This document shows, in pieces, positions 29,723-59,023 of a stretch of 64,000 bases of DNA. The first letter of the stretch is position 1. Every line of letters starts with the position of its first letter. Made by a program: the position numbers and the translations under genes. Source of the stretch: Hydrogenophaga sp. (GTDB lineage Bacteria; Pseudomonadota; Gammaproteobacteria; Burkholderiales; Burkholderiaceae_C); the NCBI GenBank assembly GCA_030653975.1, contig JAURYH010000044.1, forward strand, positions 1 through 64,000, read 5' to 3'. The notes below the pieces were generated by a model, which was not told the origin of the DNA, searched no databases, and saw only the letters and a program-made list of their open reading frames with translations.

Positions 29723-31480
29723 TTAGGCGACGCTGCGCATCTGGACCGCTTTGAATGCTTCCCAGTCGCCGATGGCTGCGCGCACCGCGCCGCGCACCAT
29801 GGCGGGCAAGGTCAACGTGGCCATGAACTCGTCGATCTGGGCGTCGAGCGCGTCCTGGCTGACGGCCACCGGTGCAGCCTGGCGCGGCGCGGGCTGCTCG
29901 ACCAGGGGATCGGTGCGGCGCACCAGGGCAGGATGGCCCCCGAAGCGTGGCTGCGCAACGGACTGCGTTTCTCCGTGCGCCTGAGGCTGCTCCACCTGTT
30001 CCACCGGTGCTGCAGGCGCCACGTAGGCGGCCTTGGCGGCGGCCGCGGCAGCCTCGACGGCAGCTGCCGCGGCGGCAGCATCGTCCGCGGCTTTCTTGCG
30101 TTCTTCTGCGGCGCGCTCCTCCTGACGCTTCTTCTCGGCCGCGGCTTCGACGGCATCCTTGTGTTTCTGGACGCGCACCTGCAGCAGCGCCCCGAAGTCG
30201 TCGGTGGCCTTGTTGCAGACCGCGGCCAGATCCGGGAAGAGGGCGGTGTGGTCCTCGCCGTTGGCCTTCAGGCTGGCCAGGTTGGCCTTGATGCGCAGGT
30301 GCGCTTCCAGGGCCTTGGCTTTGGCACCCGACAGTTCGGTCTCCACCGCGTTCTTCAGGCTGGCCAGGTTGCGCTTGTTCTTCGCGGCGCCACCGAAGTC
30401 GGCGGTGATCTGCGGCATCAGTCGCGCACCCAGGTCGCGGTCGAGTGCGCCGACGTACTGCATCAGGCTGGCGGTGGCGTCGGTGACGATCTTGGCCTTG
30501 ATGTTGTCCTTGCGCAGCTTGACCGAGCGCTCGAGGGAGATGCGGGTCTGGCCCACGCGTTCCTTGATCTCGGCCATCATCAGCACCAGCTCTTCGAGCG
30601 GGCGGCTCTGGGCCAGGGCCTGGGACTTCAGCAGCTCCAGCTGGTCCTCGACGTTTTTGCACTCCTTGCCGAATGTTTCGGCGTCGGCGAAGTCCTGGTC
30701 GCTCTCCAGCTCGGCGGCCTTGGGGGCGGCGGCCAGCCAGCGCTCGGCCATCGCCTTCCACTGATCCATGTTGCCATCGATGGCGAGCTCTCCGGTCACG
30801 TTCACCACCAGGGCCGGCAGCTTCTCGACCACGGCACCTTCGAGCTTTGGGATCTCGACAGCATCGGCCGGCGTCCAGCGTGCCAGGTCTTCCATGAACA
30901 CCTGCCATCCCAGGATCAGCTGGCGGCGGCGCTCGGGCTTGGACTCGTACCAGCAGGTGGTGGTGTTCTCTCGCGTGCCGTCGCCCACGGCCACCAGCAC
31001 GCTGTCGGCGCCGGTGACCAGGAGTTGCTGCTCCACCTGGAAGACGCGCTCCAGGTCGGGCTCGCCGTTGACGTTGATGAAGTCGACCAGGGCGTTGTTC
31101 ATGAGCTTGTGTTCCATGAGCTTGTCGATCGCCACCGTGGCGCCGTCGCAACTGGCCAGCATCCGGATGCCGTTGACCACGGCCGTGACCGTGATCGGGT
31201 ACAGCGCCTCGCCCACGATGTCTTCGGCGTGTGGCAGGAACTGCTTCTCGGTCTCGTGGCCCTTGTCGAACAGGAAGCGCTGCACGTAGTCGGACACGTC
31301 CTTGGTCAGGCCGGTGGCCTTGGCGGTCAGCAACTGGTTGCGCGTCATCTTGGTGGAGACGCCGAGCATGGCGGGGGCCTCGCTGGCGGTGCAGGTGCCT
31401 GGCAGGGCGCGCAGGGCGTGCCACTCAGGAGTCCCTTGCACCACGTTGTGGACCTGGAAGTCGGTGATTTCGATGTTCAT
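29723..31480 (-). CDS. YqaJ-type viral exonuclease with long coiled-coil extension
   Basis: 585 residues; the ATG at 31480 overlaps the recT stop (ATGA). The first about 230 residues are a YqaJ/lambda-Exo-like nuclease: QGTPEWHALR, GTCTASEAPAMLG, Asp112 (LASCDG) and Glu123-x-Lys125 (LMEHKL) of the PD-(D/E)xK core. The remaining 350 residues are helical, with AEKKRQEERAAEERKKAADD and an Ala-rich linker. With RecT it forms an exonuclease/annealase pair for double-strand break recombination. The tail is far longer than needed for nuclease activity. Confidence 0.85.
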   Translation of the reverse strand: MNIEITDFQVHNVVQGTPEWHALRALPGTCTASEAPAMLGVSTKMTRNQLLTAKATGLTKDVSDYVQRFLFDKGHETEKQFLPHAEDIVGEALYPITVTAVVNGIRMLASCDGATVAIDKLMEHKLMNNALVDFINVNGEPDLERVFQVEQQLLVTGADSVLVAVGDGTRENTTTCWYESKPERRRQLILGWQVFMEDLARWTPADAVEIPKLEGAVVEKLPALVVNVTGELAIDGNMDQWKAMAERWLAAAPKAAELESDQDFADAETFGKECKNVEDQLELLKSQALAQSRPLEELVLMMAEIKERVGQTRISLERSVKLRKDNIKAKIVTDATASLMQYVGALDRDLGARLMPQITADFGGAAKNKRNLASLKNAVETELSGAKAKALEAHLRIKANLASLKANGEDHTALFPDLAAVCNKATDDFGALLQVRVQKHKDAVEAAAEKKRQEERAAEERKKAADDAAAAAAAVEAAAAAAKAAYVAPAAPVEQVEQPQAHGETQSVAQPRFGGHPALVRRTDPLVEQPAPRQAAPVAVSQDALDAQIDEFMATLTLPAMVRGAVRAAIGDWEAFKAVQMRSVA

Positions 31481-33405
31481 GCTGCTTTCTCCATTTCGAT
31501 GGGCTTGAGGTTGTTGATGCGCCGGATCTGGTCGGCGCTGAGCTGGGCCCGGCTGGCCACGGTGGCGATCACGTCTTCGGGTGTGCGGCGGCCGCTCTCG
31601 ATGACCTTGCGCCAGGCCGGCAGGTTTTTCGCGAAGTCTTCTTCGCTGTACTCGGGCAGGCCGGCTGGTTCCTGTGGCCCGGCGGGCTGGTTGTCGGACA
31701 GCTGGATGCCTTCGCCTGCGGTGGTGTCCATGTAATTGATGGCCTTGTTCAGCGCATCGCAGCGCGGCCAGAGTTTGGAGGCCTGCTTGACGGCGGTGTT
31801 GTGGGTGATCGCCATCCAGCGACCAGCCAAGTAGGTCTTGCTGTCGCTCTCCACAGCAATGCATCTGGTTGGGACGGTCTCGATCCGCTCAATGCTCTTG
31901 ATTGAGCGGTACTTTGCGAGCTTCCTTGGGCGGATTTGCGTCACCTTCCGAGGCAGGGTTGCGCAAACCACGGACGACTTCCATACGACGGCGTGAGACA
32001 GGGCCTCGACGCCATAACCCTTTTGAGTCCTGGAGTTCATGTTCGGCGACTCGCCAAGAGAGCACGCAAGCTCATAGACCGCATCGGCCAGAGATTTCAA
32101 TGTCGATTTGAAGTGGGTTCTTCCTCGCGCCTTATCGATGTGACCATCGGAGTCGACCAGTCCACGAAGAAGGGCTAGCCGCTGATGCGTTGACGCCCTC
32201 AGGTATGCGGCTGGGACGTGCTTGTTTTCGAGTAGCCCAGCAGATCGAAGGTCCATCAGGAATCCATCGGTGATGCCGATACTGCAAGCCTTGCTACGGC
32301 TGTCTCGACGGACGGCGCCCACCTTGTATCCGGCGGCTTCAACCGCCTGCTTGATGTGATCGACGTCGTCGATGTGGCAGGTGACACTCGATCTTCCGGT
32401 GGTCCCATTGCCAAGCCAGTACCCAAGCAGATATGGATCGATAGGCAGATCGGCCAAAGGGGTCTTGAGCTCACCCTGAACAGGTATCACCACTGACAGC
32501 CCTGCCTCCTTTGCGGTCAAAAGCTCGTTGACCGTTTTGACGGAGTACGGCTTCTTGCAAAGATCGCTTCCGCCAGCTTTGGCGAGCCAGCGGTGTTCGT
32601 CGTCGCAAATGATCGATTCGCCACCAGAGAAGGTGACCTTGAAGCATGGGATGCACTTCACCTCGGAGACATCGGTAACCTGCGTAGGAAGCCCATCTTT
32701 ATCGAACACAACGTCACCGACAGACAGCTCGCCCATCGTTGTCCACCCACCAGGAGTTGGGATTGGTGTACTCAGGGCGAGGCCCTTCTTGATCATTTCG
32801 CCCTCGTCCGTGACCCAGGGCGTCTTCTTGCTCTTGTCGGACAGGTAGGCCTTGAAGGACTCGCTGCGGGCCCGGATGCTGTGCACGTCGGCGATCGTCA
32901 TCTCGTGCGTCAGGTAGTCGCCATGCTCGGTCTTGGCGACGACGTAGACGCCGACGATGGGGCCGCGCTGCTCTTCGGGGGCGAAGGCTTCGTACTTGTG
33001 CTCTGGCGGGCGGTCGTAGCCCTGGGGCTCGTAGCTGTCGCTGAGCCGCACCACCTTGGCCTGCACCCATTGCAGCGAGCCACCGCCGACGGCCAGGTCG
33101 GCCATGCCTCGGTAGCTGATGTCCAGGATGATCTGGACCCTGCCGCCGACCTTGCGCGGCACCAGGTAGGCCTGCTTCTTGGCCGGGTTCAGACTGATGC
33201 CGATGGCGGCGATGTTGGTCACCGCGTCAACCAGGGACTGGCTGTTGGCGTAGGCGGTGTCGGTCAGGTATTTGCTGGCCTGCAACAGCTGGATCGCGAA
33301 CCCGGCCTCGCGGTCGAAGTTGATCTCCGGCGCCGGCTTGAACGAGGTGAAGGTGTCCCGGCAGCCGAGAACCCACCCGGTAACGACCTCAAGTTGATTG
33401 CTCAT
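31477..33405 (-). CDS. recT: RecT-family annealase interrupted by an intein
   Basis: 642-residue precursor from the ATG at 33405 (AGGAG seven bases upstream). N-extein residues 1-207 and C-extein 537-642 join as MIKK-TAVKQASKLWPR, the conserved RecT core, giving a 313-aa mature protein. Typical RecT segments: QSLVDAVTNIAAIGISLNP, AYLVPRKVGGRVQIILDISYRG. RecT binds ssDNA and anneals homologous strands. The intein at residues 208-536 must splice out for function, since it splits the core fold. Confidence 0.92.
   Translation of the reverse strand: MSNQLEVVTGWVLGCRDTFTSFKPAPEINFDREAGFAIQLLQASKYLTDTAYANSQSLVDAVTNIAAIGISLNPAKKQAYLVPRKVGGRVQIILDISYRGMADLAVGGGSLQWVQAKVVRLSDSYEPQGYDRPPEHKYEAFAPEEQRGPIVGVYVVAKTEHGDYLTHEMTIADVHSIRARSESFKAYLSDKSKKTPWVTDEGEMIKKGLALSTPIPTPGGWTTMGELSVGDVVFDKDGLPTQVTDVSEVKCIPCFKVTFSGGESIICDDEHRWLAKAGGSDLCKKPYSVKTVNELLTAKEAGLSVVIPVQGELKTPLADLPIDPYLLGYWLGNGTTGRSSVTCHIDDVDHIKQAVEAAGYKVGAVRRDSRSKACSIGITDGFLMDLRSAGLLENKHVPAAYLRASTHQRLALLRGLVDSDGHIDKARGRTHFKSTLKSLADAVYELACSLGESPNMNSRTQKGYGVEALSHAVVWKSSVVCATLPRKVTQIRPRKLAKYRSIKSIERIETVPTRCIAVESDSKTYLAGRWMAITHNTAVKQASKLWPRCDALNKAINYMDTTAGEGIQLSDNQPAGPQEPAGLPEYSEEDFAKNLPAWRKVIESGRRTPEDVIATVASRAQLSADQIRRINNLKPIEMEKAA
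31798..32784 (-). mobile_element. LAGLIDADG intein in RecT, class 3-like
   Basis: 329 residues (numbered from Gly1). Block A: GLALSTPIPTPGGWTTMGEL and GDVVFD. Position 1 is Gly, not Cys or Ser. Block B DDEHRWL has His64 and Trp66. Block F TRCIAVESD has Cys308. Block G is Thr327-His328-Asn329, followed by Thr as +1. Trp in block B, Cys in block F and Thr before His-Asn match the class 3 triplet. Two endonuclease motifs (LLGYWLGNG, LLRGLVDSDG) show a homing endonuclease domain. A sampled 60-base line is about 52% GC against 68% in the RecT part, which suggests recent arrival. Confidence 0.9.
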
Positions 33406-33418
33406 GTGATCTCCTGAT

Positions 33419-33457
33419 TTGCTGCACAGCATACCACAAATATGCAGAACAGCAAAC
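33419..33457 (-). promoter_or_regulatory. recT promoter with two operator dyads
   Basis: Plus-strand dyads TTGCTG-CA-CAGCAT (33419-33432) and ATGCAG-AA-CAGCAAAC (33442-33457). On the minus strand the -35 TTGCTG (33455-33450) lies in one dyad and the -10 TATGCT (33433-33428) in the other, spacer 16. Confidence 0.65.
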
Positions 33458-33508
33458 ATTTAGACGAAAAAAAGCGCGAACTTGTCGCGCCGCGTGGTGA
33501 GATTTTTG

Positions 33509-49600: not shown

Positions 49601-50178
49601 TGGGCGACCACCGCAGCGTGATGGAGGCCTACCTGTCGGCCACCTACACCAGCAACCTGACGATGCGCAACAACGCCATGGGAGATGCGGATCGGCTGAT
49701 CGCCGCAGGGCTCTCCTGCATCGACCGCGACCTGGATCCGCACGAGAGGGTTCGGCGCTCGCTGGCCATGCAGGCCTTCCGGCTGCAGGGGTCGGGCGGC
49801 ATGACCGGCGCGCGCGGCCTGGCCGAGCGCCTGGGCGGCCTGCTGGTGCGCCGTTCGATGCGGGGCAGGACGCGCATGGTCTCGCCATCGGTGCGCCTGA
49901 TCGAGGCGCGCGACATTGCCTTGCTGGTGCTGCGTTGGCGCCAGCACAACACCTGCCCGGCCTGCCTGGGGCGCGGTCACCCGACCATCGGAGAAGGCCG
50001 AGAGGTGATCGACGACACCAGGGTCTGTGGTGAGTGCCATGGCACCGGCCGCATCCCGCTGGAGCGCCTGGTGCGCCGCGAGCACGCCGACCTGGCGCTG
50101 TGGCTGGCCTCCGAGATCGACTCCATGGTCGGCTTCGCCGAGGTCAAGGCGCGCAGCCTGCTGAGCCAGGCGGTATGA
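49597..50178 (+). CDS. Phage protein with DnaJ-type zinc finger, 193 aa
   Basis: CPACLGRGHPTIGEGREVID and CGECHGTGRIP are CxxCxGxG motifs as in the DnaJ zinc domain. Helical parts precede it (RTRMVSPSVRLIEARDIALL). Position ahead of the late genes and the zinc finger recall lambda Q-type antiterminators, a possibility only. Confidence 0.65.
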   Translation: MMGDHRSVMEAYLSATYTSNLTMRNNAMGDADRLIAAGLSCIDRDLDPHERVRRSLAMQAFRLQGSGGMTGARGLAERLGGLLVRRSMRGRTRMVSPSVRLIEARDIALLVLRWRQHNTCPACLGRGHPTIGEGREVIDDTRVCGECHGTGRIPLERLVRREHADLALWLASEIDSMVGFAEVKARSLLSQAV

Positions 50179-50624
50179 AACGCTCTGGTTTCAGGCAGCC
50201 GGTGCGCGAGCGCCAGCGCACGGTGCACACACCCATCCCGGAGCACCTGCGCCGCAAGGCCGTGATGGTGTCCGACATGGGGAATCCCATCTCGGCCATC
50301 GAGAAGGAAAACGCTGTGCGTTCCGAGGCCTACCGCCGTCTCGTGGCCGCCCGACCGTGCATCCACTGCGGCATCCACGGCCACTCGCAAGCAGCTCACG
50401 CTGATCAAGGAAAAGGCGGGCACATCAAGTCCGACGACCGGACTTGTTACCCGGCCTGCGGGCCGCGTGTTGGACACATCGGCTGCCATGCGCTGATCGG
50501 CATGACCGGGATCATGCCCCGAGAGGAACGCCGCGCGCTCGAGCAGAAATATGCCGAGCAAACAAGGGCGGAAATCATCAGATCTGGCCTGTGGCCAAAA
50601 AACCTGGAGCACCTCGAAGAATGA
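50175..50624 (+). CDS. HNH-superfamily nuclease-like protein (Ref/YbcO-like)
   Basis: 149 residues from the ATG at 50175. CIHCGIHGHSQAAHADQGKG, then CGPRVGHIGCHALIG: a Cys/His-rich beta-beta-metal core like the Ref and YbcO families, phage nucleases acting on recombination structures. N-terminus basic. Overlaps both neighbours by four bases. Confidence 0.65.
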   Translation: MKRSGFRQPVRERQRTVHTPIPEHLRRKAVMVSDMGNPISAIEKENAVRSEAYRRLVAARPCIHCGIHGHSQAAHADQGKGGHIKSDDRTCYPACGPRVGHIGCHALIGMTGIMPREERRALEQKYAEQTRAEIIRSGLWPKNLEHLEE

Positions 50625-51190
50625 GCCGAGCACGATCCAGGCCGTCCGAATTCATCGGACCTCCGCTGCACCTGTCCAACGCGCACGTCCTGCAGCGCGT
50701 GGCCGACAACTGCAAACCCTGCCACTGCTGCGGTGAGCCGTGGCACTGGACGGGGCGCCAGTACGGCCACGCCCTGCCGCTGATGAACGTCAACAAGAGC
50801 ATGGTCAGCGTGCGCAAGACCGCCTACCTGGCCAACGGCGGAAAGCCACCCGGAAAGGGTCAACTGATCGTCGGCCTGTGCGAAAACCCGGCCTGCATGA
50901 ACCCAGAGCTGTCGGGCCTGCGCACGCGCCAGTGGGTGATCAAGCGCGCGGTGGCGGCGGGCAAGATCCACACGCCGGCCGCGGCGGCCAAGATGGCGGC
51001 CCACCGGCGCGGCACCGGAAAGCTCTCGGGTGAAGCCGAGGCCGACCGCATCCGGTCCGCGGACCCGGCCGAGATTCAGAGCCTGTGCACCGAGATCGGC
51101 ATTAGCCGGCAGATGGCCTGGCGCATCCGAACCGGCCTGTCATGGCGCCAGTACGGCAGCCCGTGGGCCGGACTGGGGGCGAGGGCGTGA
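50621..51190 (+). CDS. Phage protein with zinc site and HTH, 189 aa
   Basis: CKPCHCCGEPWHWTGRQYGH near residue 33 and GLCENPACMNP form a possible zinc site as in HNH proteins. The C-terminal part (AEIQSLCTEIGISRQMAWRI) is a helix-turn-helix. Unknown function; possibly a nuclease or regulator. Confidence 0.6.
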   Translation: MSRARSRPSEFIGPPLHLSNAHVLQRVADNCKPCHCCGEPWHWTGRQYGHALPLMNVNKSMVSVRKTAYLANGGKPPGKGQLIVGLCENPACMNPELSGLRTRQWVIKRAVAAGKIHTPAAAAKMAAHRRGTGKLSGEAEADRIRSADPAEIQSLCTEIGISRQMAWRIRTGLSWRQYGSPWAGLGARA

Positions 51191-51681
51191 GATGGCGCAA
51201 GAACCCGCGCGAGGCCGAGGCCTACTTCCGCAACCCCTGGGTGAAGGCGCAGCTGCAGCGCCAGGTCGAGGCCACGTTGGCCGAGATCCGCCAGGCGGCC
51301 GATTGGGAAGTCTGGGCCCGGGCCAAGAACCCGGTCGAGCTGATCCACCGCGGCACCCAGGTGCTGTGGATCGTGGACCAAGCAGCCATCGCCTGCCGCT
51401 TGCCGGCGGACCTGCCCGAGCTGCGCATCATCGCCGGGGCGGCCAGGGCGCTGGCCGAGATCGCCGAGCGACCAGTCTTGGTGGAGGCTAACCGGGCATC
51501 GATCCAGTCCGGCATGGCTGCAGCCGATCGCCTGTGGCCGCAGCTGAGCGTGTGGGCGCTGGCCGAGGCCGAGATGCGTTACCACGAGACGGTGGTGACG
51601 CGTGGCATGTGCCTGAGTGATTTCCGCTACTTCGCCAACCTCAAGACCAAGGAGGCCCTACCGCCGATCGCGACCGCATGA
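51187..51681 (+). CDS. Phage protein of unknown function, 164 aa
   Basis: GTG start at 51187 overlapping the previous stop (GTGA). Helical: WVKAQLQRQVEATLAEIRQA, LRIIAGAARALAEIAERPVL. Often seen as a conserved hypothetical in betaproteobacterial phages. It ends the rightward cluster before the large non-coding stretch. Confidence 0.65.
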   Translation: MRWRKNPREAEAYFRNPWVKAQLQRQVEATLAEIRQAADWEVWARAKNPVELIHRGTQVLWIVDQAAIACRLPADLPELRIIAGAARALAEIAERPVLVEANRASIQSGMAAADRLWPQLSVWALAEAEMRYHETVVTRGMCLSDFRYFANLKTKEALPPIATA

Positions 51682-51688
51682 AAAAATG

Positions 51689-51754
51689 TTGTCGAAACAG
51701 CAAACAGTTCTTGGAATAATGGTTGCTGAGTGGTAAAGTCTCTTTTGTCGATCT
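51689..51754 (+). promoter_or_regulatory. Promoter/operator at the head of the non-coding stretch
   Basis: CAGCAAAC (51698-51705) with TTGTCG to its left is a variant of the phage operator. Downstream TTGGAA (51711-51716) and TAAAGT (51734-51739) at 17-base spacing could be a promoter, its spacer holding another TTGCTG. It would transcribe the structured region that follows. Confidence 0.5.
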
Positions 51755-52500
51755 CAGCAGGGTTTCGGGTTGGCGCCGAAGCAAGTCATTCTCCTGTATC
51801 CCAATGTCAAACGCTGCCCTATGCGGCCTGCTGTATCGAACGACTGGCACCCGCAAGGTGCCGCCATCAGGTCATCGCCGTGCATTTTGGGGCGGACACC
51901 AGGCGGGCACCTAGGCTCTGTCGGGGTTCGATTCCCCGCAAGCCGCACAACGTGTACCGGCGATGACCTGATGGCGGCATAGTGAAAATGTGAGAACAAC
52001 GACACGCACCGACCCGGTGAAATACCCGAGTGGTGAGCAAAAGGTCTCTTCAAAACGGGCCGATGTCCGCGCCATCCGACACTCCCTGCCGCCGTCAACC
52101 TATTGTTCAGAGACCACGCCGCCCACAAGGCGCCGAAAGATGCGAAGACCCTGGTCGGGGTCCAGCCTGAAGCGGCACCAGCCATCGAACTGCTGTGGTA
52201 AGCAGGAGCAGCCGCCTTGAAATCGCCTGACGCCTCGGAAAGACGAGGACCATCAGGGCCGCGCATGGCAGGCGGGTCGAGGGCGGAGGTTAGCCGACGT
52301 CATCCTATTGCGCAGCACCGGCAGCCCCGGAAGTGCGCGGCCCTGATGGGCAGCGAAGTACAAGCGGCATCACGCGACCTGGCACTGTGATAAGCCAGGG
52401 GTAGCGGCCTGTGAGTGAAATCCGAACGAAACGAGTGGCCAACGGTGGGCCTGGGCAGGCAAACACCGAGACAGCCGGAGAGACGGCACCAACATCAACA
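51745..52500 (+). ncRNA. Candidate large structured phage RNA
   Basis: No plausible gene in 51682-52510. Structure is dense. A 21-bp perfect inverted repeat (51860-51880 with 51958-51978) encloses 77 nt that hold a T-arm-like hairpin CGGGG-TTCGATT-CCCCG. A 15-bp perfect repeat (52250-52264 with 52335-52349) encloses 70 nt. Further stems: GGTCTCT/AGAGACC (52043-52049 with 52109-52115), GGCACC/GGTGCC (51846-51862), GACCC/GGGTC (52147-52162), CCTCG/CGAGG (52233-52248), CCTGGC/GCCAGG (52378-52399). Size, phage setting and tRNA-like element recall ornate large RNAs such as GOLLD or ROOL, but identity is unproven. Confidence 0.6.
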
Positions 52501-52510
52501 GGGGATTCCG

Positions 52511-53038
52511 ATGCACAGCATGTTCATGAGTAAAGGCGAGGACTGGAAGTCCCGCGCGCTGGCCGCCGAGAATCGCCTCGCCAACGCCGCCGTGGCGCTG
52601 GAGACCGCCATCAAGGAGGCGGACCGCTGGTTCGATGAGGCCTGCGGTGACGGCCGCGTCGACTCGAAAGAAATGGACGGCGCTCGCGAGGTGCTGCGCA
52701 GCCTGCTGCCGAACTCGCCACAGGGCTCCTCGAGCAATGAGCTTGACGTCACCAAGACCGCCATCAACCAGGCCAGCCAGCGCTTGGCGCGTGACCTGGA
52801 TGCACTGGTGAGTGAAGGCATCACCCGGGCCTTGGGTGGTGCCGAGTGGATGTTGGCCGACGTGGCCAACCGGTGCACCCGCACCCGAGTGCAGGGCGAC
52901 GACATCGAGACCTGGTGCCTGGACGGCGTGCCGTTCCTCGAGGTGCAGGACGTGCCGCCATCGATCGACGACAAATTCATCGCCAAGATGCAGTTCAACT
53001 ACCGCTTCCTGTTCAATGAGGTGCAGCATGCCGGTTGA
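52511..53038 (+). CDS. Phage protein of unknown function, 175 aa
   Basis: MHSMFMSKGEDWKSRALAAE, helical with TKTAINQASQRLARDLDALV. Starts 11 bases after AACAGGGG. First gene after the structured RNA region. No domain known. Confidence 0.6.
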   Translation: MHSMFMSKGEDWKSRALAAENRLANAAVALETAIKEADRWFDEACGDGRVDSKEMDGAREVLRSLLPNSPQGSSSNELDVTKTAINQASQRLARDLDALVSEGITRALGGAEWMLADVANRCTRTRVQGDDIETWCLDGVPFLEVQDVPPSIDDKFIAKMQFNYRFLFNEVQHAG

Positions 53039-57271: not shown

Positions 57272-57500
57272 TGCCATCGTCCGAGCAGGGACGATTCAGT
57301 GGATCAAGGTCGGCTACTCGCTGGGCCGCGCAGAGCGTGAGCACATCTATCCGCTGGACGACTACCGGCCGCACGAGATCGACCTGGATGGCGCCTGCTG
57401 GTGCCGGCCCGAGTTCGACGCGAAAGACCCTGGCCTGGTGATCCACAACGCCATGGATGGGCGCGAGGCGTTCGAGACCGGCGCGAGGTTGATGTCCTGA
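57255..57500 (+). CDS. Small phage protein between terminase genes, 81 aa
   Basis: ATG 57255, overlapping the small subunit's end by 17 bases and ending on the large-subunit start. AIVRAGTIQWIKVGYSLGRA and LVIHNAMDGREAFETGARLM. Unknown; its position suggests packaging or a regulatory peptide. Confidence 0.6.
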   Translation: MPAPTDAIVRAGTIQWIKVGYSLGRAEREHIYPLDDYRPHEIDLDGACWCRPEFDAKDPGLVIHNAMDGREAFETGARLMS

Positions 57501-59023
57501 TGAGCCTCACGCCAGAGGAGCGAGAGCAGGCGCTGCGCCGGGTGCGCGAGAGTCTGCTGGTGCACATCGCGCACTGCGCAAAGATCAAGGACAAGTCTGG
57601 CAAGGTGATCCCGTTTCGTCTGAACCGGGCGCAGCGCTACATCCATGAAAGGCTGGAGCAGCAGCGCGCGGCCACGGGGATGGTTCGGGCGCTGATCCTT
57701 AAAAGCCGTCAACAAGGATCGTCAACTTACGTCGGTGAGCGCTTCTATCACCAGGTGTCGACTCAGGGGAAAAGCGCCTTCATCATGGCGCATGAGGACA
57801 AGGCGACACGCAACTTGTTCGAGATGGTCAAGCGCTACCAGGACCACAACCCACTGGCGCCCAGCACCAAGGCCTCGAACGCACAGGAGCTGATCTTCGG
57901 GGCTTTGGATGCCAGCTACAAACTGGCGACCGCGGGCACGGACGACGTTGGCCGATCGAACACGGCGCAGTTGCTTCATGGCTCTGAGGTGGCGTTCTGG
58001 CGCAAGCCGCAGATGCACCTGGCGAGCATTGGCAACACGGTGGCCGACATGGTTGGCACAGAGATCATCCTGGAGTCCACCGGCAACGGCCAGGGCAACG
58101 CCTTTCATTTAATGTGGCAGGAGGCCGAGGCAGGGCGCGGCGACTACATCGCGATCTTCGTGCCCTGGTTCTGGCAGGAGGAGTACCGGGCACCGGTGAA
58201 GCCCGACCTCGAGCTGAGCAATGAAGACCTGAAGTACATGCAGGCCTACGGGCTGGACATGGAGCAGATGCAGTGGCGGGCGAACAAGATCTCGACCTAC
58301 GGCCGCGGCTTCGAGTGGCTGTTCGATCAGGAGTACCCGGCGACCGCCAGCCTGGCGTTCCAGTCGGCCACGGTGAACCCGCTGATCAGCCCGCACGACG
58401 TGATGGCGGCGGTGAACTCCAGTTTCGTCGAGGGCCGCGCGCCGCTGATCATTGGTTGCGACCCGGCGGGTGATGGCGCCAACAACGCCGACCGCACGGC
58501 GATCGCTTTCAGGCGTGGGCGCATGTGCTTTCGCGTCGAGTACCACGAGGGTCTCAACACCATGCAGGTGGCCGGCAAGCTGGCCGCCTACTGGAACGAG
58601 ATGCACCCGGATGCGATGTTCATCGACAAGACCGGCCTGGGTGCCGGCATCGTGGACCGGCTGCAGGAGCTGAACATCCCGGTGATCGGCGTGAGCAACG
58701 CCAGCGCCGCGATCGACAGCGAGCGCTACGAGAACAAACGTGCCGAGCTCTGGTACCTGATGAAAGAGTGGTTCGAGAACACCCCGTGCCGTTTGCCCAA
58801 CGACGCCGCGCTGATCTCCGACATCACCTCGCCCATGCCGCGCAACAGCAGCAACGGTCGAAAGATGGTCGAGAAAAAAGAAGACATGACCAAACGCGGC
58901 ATCCGCTCGCCAGACGGCGCCGATGCGCTGTCGCTGACATTTGCCATGCCCGTCCAGTTCCGCGACCAGAGCGCTGGACGTGCCCCAGAAACAACCAGCC
59001 CAGCCACCAAGGCGGGGTACTGA
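57500..59023 (+). CDS. Terminase large subunit
   Basis: 507 residues from the ATG at 57500. ATPase domain with a deviant Walker A (LKSRQQGSSTYVGE), Walker B region (LLHGSEVAFW) and coupling motif (ILESTGNGQGN). Nuclease domain: IGCDPAGDGANNADRTA, DAMFIDKTGLGAGI and the C-terminal PDGADALSLTFA. It cuts concatemers and drives DNA into the prohead. Its start overlaps the previous stop (ATGA). Confidence 0.93.
   Translation: MSLTPEEREQALRRVRESLLVHIAHCAKIKDKSGKVIPFRLNRAQRYIHERLEQQRAATGMVRALILKSRQQGSSTYVGERFYHQVSTQGKSAFIMAHEDKATRNLFEMVKRYQDHNPLAPSTKASNAQELIFGALDASYKLATAGTDDVGRSNTAQLLHGSEVAFWRKPQMHLASIGNTVADMVGTEIILESTGNGQGNAFHLMWQEAEAGRGDYIAIFVPWFWQEEYRAPVKPDLELSNEDLKYMQAYGLDMEQMQWRANKISTYGRGFEWLFDQEYPATASLAFQSATVNPLISPHDVMAAVNSSFVEGRAPLIIGCDPAGDGANNADRTAIAFRRGRMCFRVEYHEGLNTMQVAGKLAAYWNEMHPDAMFIDKTGLGAGIVDRLQELNIPVIGVSNASAAIDSERYENKRAELWYLMKEWFENTPCRLPNDAALISDITSPMPRNSSNGRKMVEKKEDMTKRGIRSPDGADALSLTFAMPVQFRDQSAGRAPETTSPATKAGY

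What the first reader, a model, noticed from the sequence alone, without database searches (positions are those of the whole stretch)
51682..52510. Approximately 800-nt gene-free region with nested long inverted repeats: a candidate giant ornate phage RNA
Two perfect inverted repeats (21 bp enclosing 77 nt; 15 bp enclosing 70 nt) and at least five shorter stems occur in order, with no convincing gene. The 21-bp stem encloses a T-arm mimic (CGGGG-TTCGATT-CCCCG), though no full tRNA can be folded. An operator-bearing promoter lies at its start. GOLLD and ROOL RNAs are about this size, live in phages and often sit with tRNAs. This could be one, a divergent relative, or a new class.
Basis: partly seen in the sequence, partly recalled or inferred. 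Interest (0 to 1): 0.8.

Follow-up and report, generated by a model that had tools for sequence, protein, structure and literature searches.

The report
Modular tRNA-end-mimicking phage RNA cassettes
The gene-free stretch encodes one member of an apparently undescribed family of folded phage RNAs, built from swappable blocks that each start at a tRNA-like "CCA" end, and although its job is unknown its base pairing is strongly supported by evolution.

Summary
In detail: a ~790-nt stretch without a convincing gene, two perfect inverted repeats (22 bp/77 nt, 16 bp/68 nt) and an exact T-arm mimic. No Rfam 15 family, GOLLD and ROOL included, reaches its cutoff there. It belongs to a family of modular structured RNAs carried mainly by phages.

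A typical block starts 1 nt after a hairpin GAC-stem-GGARAGAC-stem-ACYA; a long-range helix begins at that CYA: CCAUCA-N10...N10'-UGAUGG. A pattern that did not ask for complementarity gave 74 non-redundant viral matches; 71 can form the 4-bp stem, with 32 stem sequences. In 73 long-range helices pairs change on both sides at all but two of 16 positions, G·T exceeding A·C mismatches 45:16.

Fuller cassettes (not the window) add two hairpins with kissing loops and a 3' octamer matching the same internal "guide" (UGAUGGUG/CACCAUCA, UGAUAGUU/AACUAUCA). Related phages show filled, empty and swapped sites. Predicted tRNAs can replace the hairpin, the helix then starting at their CCA.

Inferred function: tRNA-3'-end mimicry in a phage RNA scaffold. 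A mobile, guide-carrying RNA cassette is the bolder reading. There is no transcript or biochemical evidence.

The parts
51692..51720 (+). sigma-70-like promoter match before the RNA
   Evidence: 9 of 12 positions, 1 found against 0.4 expected; consensus match only
51846..51862 (+). leader hairpin GGCACC-CGCAA-GGTGCC directly before the first CCATCA
   Evidence: sequence; by eye the same position as leader hairpins in L172, L183, L185 and L187
51864..51880 (+). block 0, 5' arm of the long-range helix, starts CCATCA (22-bp arm 51859-51880)
51922..51938 (+). T-arm mimic CGGGG-TTCGATT-CCCCG inside block 0
   Evidence: T-arm mimics are enriched on the sense strand of such blocks
51958..51979 (+). 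block 0, 3' arm of the long-range helix, TGATGG then CGGCA at its end
51969..51976 (+). block 0 guide octamer TGATGGCG
   Evidence: guide defined by comparison
52090..52097 (+). candidate 3' octamer CGCCGTCA of block 0; pairs 8 of 8 with the guide (one G.U), followed by AACCTATTG as in L087 and L104
   Evidence: sequence; pairing found by eye, no control; flanks of L087 and L104
52233..52248 (+). hairpin G1, CCTC-GGAAAGAC-GAGG
   Evidence: covariation of this hairpin
52250..52266 (+). block 1, 5' arm of the long-range helix
52333..52349 (+). block 1, 3' arm of the long-range helix
52344..52351 (+). block 1 guide octamer TGATGGGC (no full 3' match seen)
52352..52473 (+). 3' domain of block 1, conserved in L140 and L089 and more distantly in L204 and L163
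52474..52491 (+). hairpin G2 GCC-GGAGAGAC-GGC followed by ACCA; next ATG at 52511

Best explanation
The stretch is transcribed (inferred) as one ~790-nt untranslated phage RNA, or as the leader of the gene at 52511. It consists of two structured blocks, each opening after a hairpin; block 1 opens at a tRNA-like ACCA end. SHOWN by comparison: (1) the hairpin GAC-stem-GGARAGAC-stem-ACYA; (2) a long-range helix that starts at that CYA and closes a variable domain; (3) in fuller relatives, a central hairpin, a terminal hairpin, a loop-loop pairing between them, and a 3' octamer complementary to the same guide; (4) blocks that are present, absent or swapped between related phages; (5) predicted tRNAs that take the hairpin's place, the helix starting at their CCA. 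INFERRED: the hairpin-ACCA ends mimic tRNA 3' ends, the T-arm and cloverleaf domains mimic tRNA bodies, and the RNA serves as a scaffold or decoy that presents or hides tRNA-like ends during infection, for example towards tRNA-processing or tRNA-attacking enzymes. The structural claim stands at about 0.95, this function at about 0.35; the readings overlap, so the odds given need not sum to one.
For: Hairpin: a viral-contig scan that did not ask for complementarity (80 of at least 120 stretches listed and used) gave 74 non-redundant matches: 63 have four Watson-Crick pairs, 8 more have four with G.U, 3 have three of four; 32 stem sequences; G.T 10, A.C 1 (about 1 in 256 expected). Long-range helix: 37 of 94 hairpin sites at >=12/16 Watson-Crick, against 21 of 1880 shuffled and 11 of 428 offset controls; 73 of 171 modules in the enlarged set, pairs changing on both sides at all positions but 1 and 3. 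Guide and 3' end: 3' hexamer complementary to the guide in 20 of 23 cassettes, 0 of 10000 shuffles as high; octamers 180 of 184 Watson-Crick, best of 5000 shuffles 168. Whole structure on 16 cassettes: 95.1% of cells paired, 31-50% when slid; 12 of 27 pairs changed on both sides, 0 of 500 shuffles as high. Mainly phage-borne: 4 of 299 genomes of the family and 1 of 200 of the phylum, the window's own counted in both. tRNA link; helix at the tRNA CCA in 5 of 129 testable tRNAs, four of them ending TGG; Rfam scores a tRNA inside a long-range helix of L235; T-arm mimics 8 sense, 0 antisense, 0.05 in shuffles, in 75 cassettes.
Against: No transcript, probing or protein partner is known. The window lacks the canonical central and terminal hairpins, and its second guide has no full 3' octamer. 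Folding is no better than shuffles. T-arm mimics occur in 7 of 75 cassettes, so tRNA-body mimicry is not general. The 5' hexamer is an exact complement of the guide in only 11 of 23 cassettes (G.U is common, and one 5' arm, L086, was misplaced). 3-bp hairpins rarely carry the long helix (4 of 42), so standalone hairpins may have another role. Five of 129 tRNAs is a small excess over the ~1%, and tRNA adjacency was counted in loci fetched for these motifs or for a terminase, hence biased. Neighbouring genes are diverse and name no pathway. L005's array overlaps a mechanical 171-aa sense ORF, 1996-2511, not tested further. 32 of 176 modules lie in sense stop-free runs of >=150 codons (52 antisense), and in Bradyrhizobium phage ppBdUSDA122-1 a copy with a broken stem is read in frame inside a gene.
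Confidence: 0.5

Rival explanations
1. A mobile or self-excising RNA cassette: the internal guide UGAUGG(UG) recognises the 5' CYAWCA left of the insert and the 3' CCAWCA at its right end, so the cassette can leave or enter after hairpin-A or tRNA-CCA sites, much as an intron or guide-RNA element would.
For: Related phages filled and empty at one site: L105 (+163 nt) and L113 (+135 nt) against L103/L109; left flanks 93-95% identical, right flank 94-95% for L113 but only 52 nt available for L105 (100%). A different insert between similar flanks in L087/L104 (81-95%) and L086/L100 (78-81%); L090 filled where L122 is not. Guide complementary to both flanks. Two variable domains in a constant scaffold.
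Against: No reverse transcriptase, IS110-type recombinase or Nop protein among the Pfam families shown (25 of 28) for 64 neighbouring proteins, chosen from 125. Insert ends are not exact target duplications (5' CUAUCA against 3' CCAUCA in several). Rfam intron models do not match. Loss or homologous recombination explains presence and absence equally well.
Confidence: 0.2
2. A new class of large RNA that assembles into a multimer like GOLLD and ROOL; the hairpin loops and kissing loops are tertiary contacts.
For: Size, phage setting and tRNA neighbours resemble GOLLD and ROOL (passages of PMC12286853); kissing pairing of >=5 bp in 18 of 21 cassettes.
Against: Modules vary from a lone hairpin to several cassettes, unlike one fixed architecture; no Rfam match; at least one of 2000 partner shuffles of the loops also reached 18 of 21.
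Confidence: 0.25
3. A cis-acting leader switch: the guide pairs either with the 5' or with the 3' strand and so controls the next gene (translation or antitermination).
For: Guide shared by two strands; in 14 of 73 module loci the downstream ORF chosen by script starts within 60 nt, and in the window an ATG follows at 52511.
Against: The 16-bp 5' helix should outcompete an 8-bp 3' helix; some arrays end in terminators as read by eye; neighbouring genes share no theme.
Confidence: 0.2
4. DNA-level hairpins used for recombination or packaging, not an RNA.
For: Palindromic arms and intergenic, swappable position resemble folded single-strand recombination sites.
Against: G.T outnumber A.C mismatches on one strand (10:1; 45:16, 12 of the 45 at position 2; 30:9); T-arm mimics lie on the same sense strand.
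Confidence: 0.07

Closest known systems
GOLLD RNA
   Same: large structured phage RNA near tRNAs; some hold a tRNA in a linker (passages of PMC12286853)
   Different: no Rfam match; cassette architecture with shared guide
ROOL RNA
   Same: large phage/prophage RNA near tRNA islands, no known protein (passages)
   Different: no Rfam match; modular and variable in number
T-box and RNase P RNA (recalled, no call)
   Same: a UGG/GGU stretch that pairs with a tRNA 3' CCA
   Different: here in cis, inside a long helix; neither family matched at gathering score
TIGR-Tas stem-loop arrays and IS110 bridge RNA
   Same: phage RNA arrays with CCA/UG boxes and palindromes (passages of PMC12045711)
   Different: TIGR units hold 8-12-nt spacers and accompany Nop-domain proteins; here blocks are larger and no such protein appeared among the families shown
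Integron cassette arrays (recalled, no call)
   Same: swappable blocks added after a folded site
   Different: non-coding blocks, RNA-type wobble signature; an integron integrase was not specifically searched for

Membership tests
GOLLD | match to the Rfam covariance model | tested here: not met
   Searches (window; 33 distinct related loci): no match at gathering score; none at E<=10 in 51600-52600
GOLLD | phage-borne, near tRNAs, about 800 nt | tested here: inconclusive
   size and phage setting fit; the one predicted tRNA in the window is 30 kb away; some relatives do adjoin tRNAs
ROOL | match to the Rfam covariance model | tested here: not met
tRNA | cloverleaf found by ARAGORN or Rfam in the stretch | tested here: not met
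   only a T-arm in the window. One relative block (L235) scores as tRNA in Rfam, 48.4 bits, not in ARAGORN
tmRNA | ARAGORN or Rfam tmRNA | tested here: not met
   one search gives 10.7 bits against a cutoff of 70
HEARO, group I and group II introns | Rfam model match | tested here: not met
TIGR array | alternating 8-12-nt repeats and ~9-nt spacers, or stem-loop arrays, with a Nop-domain Tas protein | tested here: inconclusive
   no Nop family among the 25 of 28 Pfam families shown for 64 neighbours nor for ten proteins of the window; arrays not tested with a TIGR model
the family described here | hairpin GAC-stem-GGARAGAC-stem-ACYA | tested here: met
   two copies in the window
the family described here | long-range helix starting 1 nt after a hairpin at CYA | tested here: met
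   52250-52349; also 51864-51974 after another hairpin
the family described here | central and terminal hairpins with kissing loops | tested here: not met
   21 domains found in the loci held, none in the window
multimeric RNA cage | homo-oligomer | not testable with these tools
   needs mass photometry or cryo-EM

The most novel reading that the evidence does not exclude
A self-contained mobile RNA element of phages: a folded cassette of some 130-300 nt with no gene of its own that inserts after tRNA or tRNA-like CCA ends, carrying an internal guide that reads both flanks, perhaps a ribozyme that excises or inserts itself.
Probability: 0.15. Interest if true: 0.96.

Novelty: categorically new. 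Interest (0 to 1): 0.85.

Why it matters
Large phage RNAs of unknown function are a standing puzzle. This family is common in viral contigs, gave no Rfam 15 match in what was scanned, is modular, and is tied to tRNA 3' ends by a covarying guide. That gives direct tests: break and restore the pairings, look for processing at the ACCA ends, look for spliced or free cassettes. If it proves mobile it would be an RNA element without a gene; if it proves a decoy it adds a layer to the phage-host contest over tRNAs.

Tried and rejected
Rejected: GOLLD, ROOL, HEARO, tmRNA, introns; a hidden gene. Plain blastn in phages, plasmids and 100 related genomes found no credible homologue (the Myxococcus phage Mx8 hit covers 35 nt in the next gene). 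Flanking proteins as bait found none in viral contigs. The terminase as bait worked: 197 relatives, best 80 kept. Neighbour domains gave no theme (64 proteins that I picked from 125 computed). An upstream hairpin before GAC is a subset feature only: 41 of 174 with five perfect pairs, 3.6% in shuffles. Kissing loops: 18 of 21, but at least one of 2000 partner shuffles also reached 18 (mean 10.6), because two loop types dominate; letter shuffles give 2.7%. Right-hairpin searches fixed positions 1 and 6 of the hexamer and narrowed 2 and 3, so mainly positions 2 and 4 test the coupling; of 76 central-hairpin matches, 48 had a long helix and 23 had all parts. Two scripts with faulty patterns gave no usable count and were corrected (91 to 92, 102 to 103). 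Terminators and leader hairpins in relatives were judged by eye.

Rows dropped: near-duplicate sites (usually >80 of 100 letters alike) were dropped before the counts; copies of the window or of L005 (L001, L082, L095, later L189 and L308) and in several scripts L063 were left out. One search used the 80 stretches listed of at least 120; later scripts used all loci held.

Full report
What is there. The stretch between the ORF that ends at 51681 and the ATG at 52511 (frame open from a GTG at 52415) holds two perfect inverted repeats: 22 bp (51859-51880/51958-51979, 77 nt between) and 16 bp (52250-52265/52334-52349, 68 nt between). None of 40 dinucleotide shuffles of the window gave one of 16 bp or more; the window has two. 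The T-arm mimic is exact (51922-51938). Sense stop-free runs reach 79-83 codons; one 182-codon minus-strand run is open. A promoter-like match lies at 51692-51720. Against a special fold, 51727-52510 is no more stable than shuffles (z -1.04).

Known families. Rfam 15 gives nothing at gathering score in the stretch. At E<=10 it gives four weak hits, among them mascRNA (20.4 bits) and cyanobacterial tmRNA (10.7 bits), both tRNA-like as I recall. Two scans of 19 and 16 related loci (33 distinct) gave only tRNAs and one Burkholderiales-2 RNA outside the array. Blastn found no credible homologue in phages, plasmids or 100 related genomes.

How relatives were found. The terminase downstream (57494-59020) led to 197 viral relatives, the best 80 kept. 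One, L005, has a stretch at 1757-2520 that shares short words in order with the window but has different arm sequences with the same pairing; a mechanical 171-aa ORF runs through part of it. Two words were scanned in viral contigs: 46 and 42 stretches. They are two forms of one hairpin, GAC[AG]-stem-GGARAGAC-stem, followed by ACYA. The closest relatives of the window are L089 (70% over 281 aligned positions) and L140 (88.7% over 97); a five-way alignment shows the 3' domain of block 1 conserved, mean column identity 74%.

The hairpin covaries. Of 74 non-redundant matches in those 80, 63 have four Watson-Crick pairs, 8 have four with G.U, 3 have three of four. There are 32 different stems; G.T pairs number 10, A.C 1. 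In bacterial genomes the element is rare: 4 of 299 of the family, own one included; 1 of 200 of the phylum, the own one; 4 stretches in the whole genome-contig collection for one 23-letter form. So it is mainly a phage feature; whether the bacterial copies are prophages was not tested, though the Acidovorax arrays L173 and L174 recur in viral contigs L128 and L117.

The long-range helix. Starting 1 nt after the hairpin, the next 16 bases find a partner 45-240 nt downstream with >=12 Watson-Crick pairs at 37 of 94 sites (33 of 52 with 4-bp hairpins, 4 of 42 with 3-bp), against 21 of 1880 shuffled and 11 of 428 offset controls. In the enlarged set 73 of 171 modules have it; 45 G.T stand against 16 A.C. 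Positions 1 and 3 hardly vary (C-G 70, A-U 71 of 73); the rest change on both sides, for example position 2 C-G 39, U.G 12, U-A 21, and position 4 C-G 11, U-A 43, A-U 16.

The fuller cassette. In relatives the UGAUGG end of the helix ('guide') is followed by a central hairpin, a variable domain, a terminal hairpin and CACCAUCA. In 23 cassettes with all parts, the 3' hexamer is the exact complement of the guide in 20; 0 of 10000 shuffles were as high; the 5' hexamer is exact in 11 of 23, the rest mostly through G.U. Octamers: 180 of 184 pairs Watson-Crick, shuffles mean 150, maximum 168 of 5000. Types include UGAUGGUG/CACCAUCA, UGUUGGUG/CACCAACA and UGAUAGUU/AACUAUCA. RNAalifold, on 16 cassettes, found this pairing unprompted, and a loop-loop pairing GCUGAU/AUCAGC or GGUGAU/AUCACC. 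With these pairs named, 95.1% of cells pair (31-50% when slid) and 12 of 27 pairs change on both sides, 0 of 500 shuffles as high; further pair types were matched by 18 of 500. The guide thus matches both the strand before and the strand at the end of the cassette. In the window block 0 has guide 51969-51976 and a candidate 3' octamer at 52090-52097 (8 of 8, one G.U, by eye); block 1 has none. The canonical central and terminal hairpins are absent from the window.

Cassettes come and go. L103 and L109 (near-identical to each other) have the hairpin followed shortly by the next gene; L105 and L113 carry 163 and 135 more bases exactly there. Left flanks are 93-95% identical over 2.5 kb; the right flank is 94-95% for L113 and 100% over the 52 bases available for L105. 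L087/L104 (81-95%) and L086/L100 (78-81%) carry different cassettes between similar flanks; L090 is filled where L122 is not, in flanks of 76-90%. This shows presence, absence and exchange, not how they move.

The tRNA link. In L165, L120, L237 and L297 a predicted tRNA stands where the hairpin should be and the long-range helix starts at its CCA. Five of 129 testable tRNAs qualify at >=12 pairs, about 1% being expected; the fifth (L208) does not end TGG and may be chance. In L293 a tRNA-Thr ends C-ACCA-TCA, the same octamer. In L235 a tRNA-like cloverleaf fills the domain inside the helix and scores 48.4 bits as tRNA, though ARAGORN does not call it. T-arm mimics: 8 sense, 0 antisense, 0.05 in letter shuffles, in 7 of 75 cassettes. 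34 of 163 tRNAs lie within 1 kb of a hairpin, in loci that were chosen for the motifs or a terminase.

Where it sits. Neighbours are diverse: of 64 proteins that I picked from 125 computed neighbours, PD-(D/E)XK nucleases were 6, with capsid proteins, DNA polymerases and single-strand binding proteins among the rest. Of 35 phage records matched, many by chance words, seven were opened: the hairpin is intact in Morganella phage IME1369_02 and Providencia phage PSTRCR_117lys (near-identical stretches), EBPR podovirus 1, Pseudomonas phage Itty13 and Myoviridae ctjtQ328; Stenotrophomonas phage phiSHP3 has a loop one base longer, after the major capsid gene. In Bradyrhizobium phage ppBdUSDA122-1 a copy with a broken stem is read in frame inside a gene. 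Long-range helices were not sought one by one in these named phages.

Reading. The pairings are about as well supported as comparison allows. Function is inference. I favour tRNA-3'-end mimicry in a phage RNA scaffold or decoy, because hairpin-ACCA ends and tRNA CCA ends are interchangeable in some arrays and T-arm domains recur. The bolder reading is a mobile RNA cassette, because the guide reads both flanks and filled and empty sites exist. A two-state leader and a GOLLD-like multimer remain open.

Literature. Seven library searches (listings only) showed no description of this element. I saw passages of PMC12286853, PMC2864571 and PMC12045711, none in whole. The 2017 paper on 224 candidate RNAs (recalled) is not held, so prior description under another name cannot be excluded. 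T-box, RNase P and integron comparisons rest on recall.

Noticed in passing
window 31477-33459 (-): A RecT-family annealing protein with an in-frame, apparently intein-like insert carrying a LAGLIDADG endonuclease ('intein' is my reading).
   Followed up: partly
L005 781-1120: A second hairpin-rich stretch between two likely genes upstream of the array in the same phage, without the GGARAGAC hairpin.
   Followed up: no
L171, L172, L183, L185, L187 terminal hairpins: The terminal hairpin reads GCCGGGATCACCTCCGGC (one base differs in L172); GGATCACCTCC is, from recall, the 3' end of 16S rRNA (anti-Shine-Dalgarno). May be chance.
   Followed up: no
L160, L138, L139, L143, L154: Two or three hairpins in tandem between two genes, as GGUGUGACA-hairpin-AGCGACACC repeats.
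   Followed up: partly
L175 3001-3045 (Bradyrhizobium phage ppBdUSDA122-1); also L137, L144, L150: Copies of the hairpin region inside long sense open frames, perhaps read as protein.
   Followed up: partly
L006 8544-8615, L007 5803-5874: A lone 16-bp CCATCA...TGATGG helix with a GGTTCGATACC T-arm-like word, about 1.4 kb upstream of the terminase.
   Followed up: no
window 50136-51187: Two adjacent endonuclease-like genes (an HNH family and another phage endonuclease family) just upstream of the RNA.
   Followed up: no
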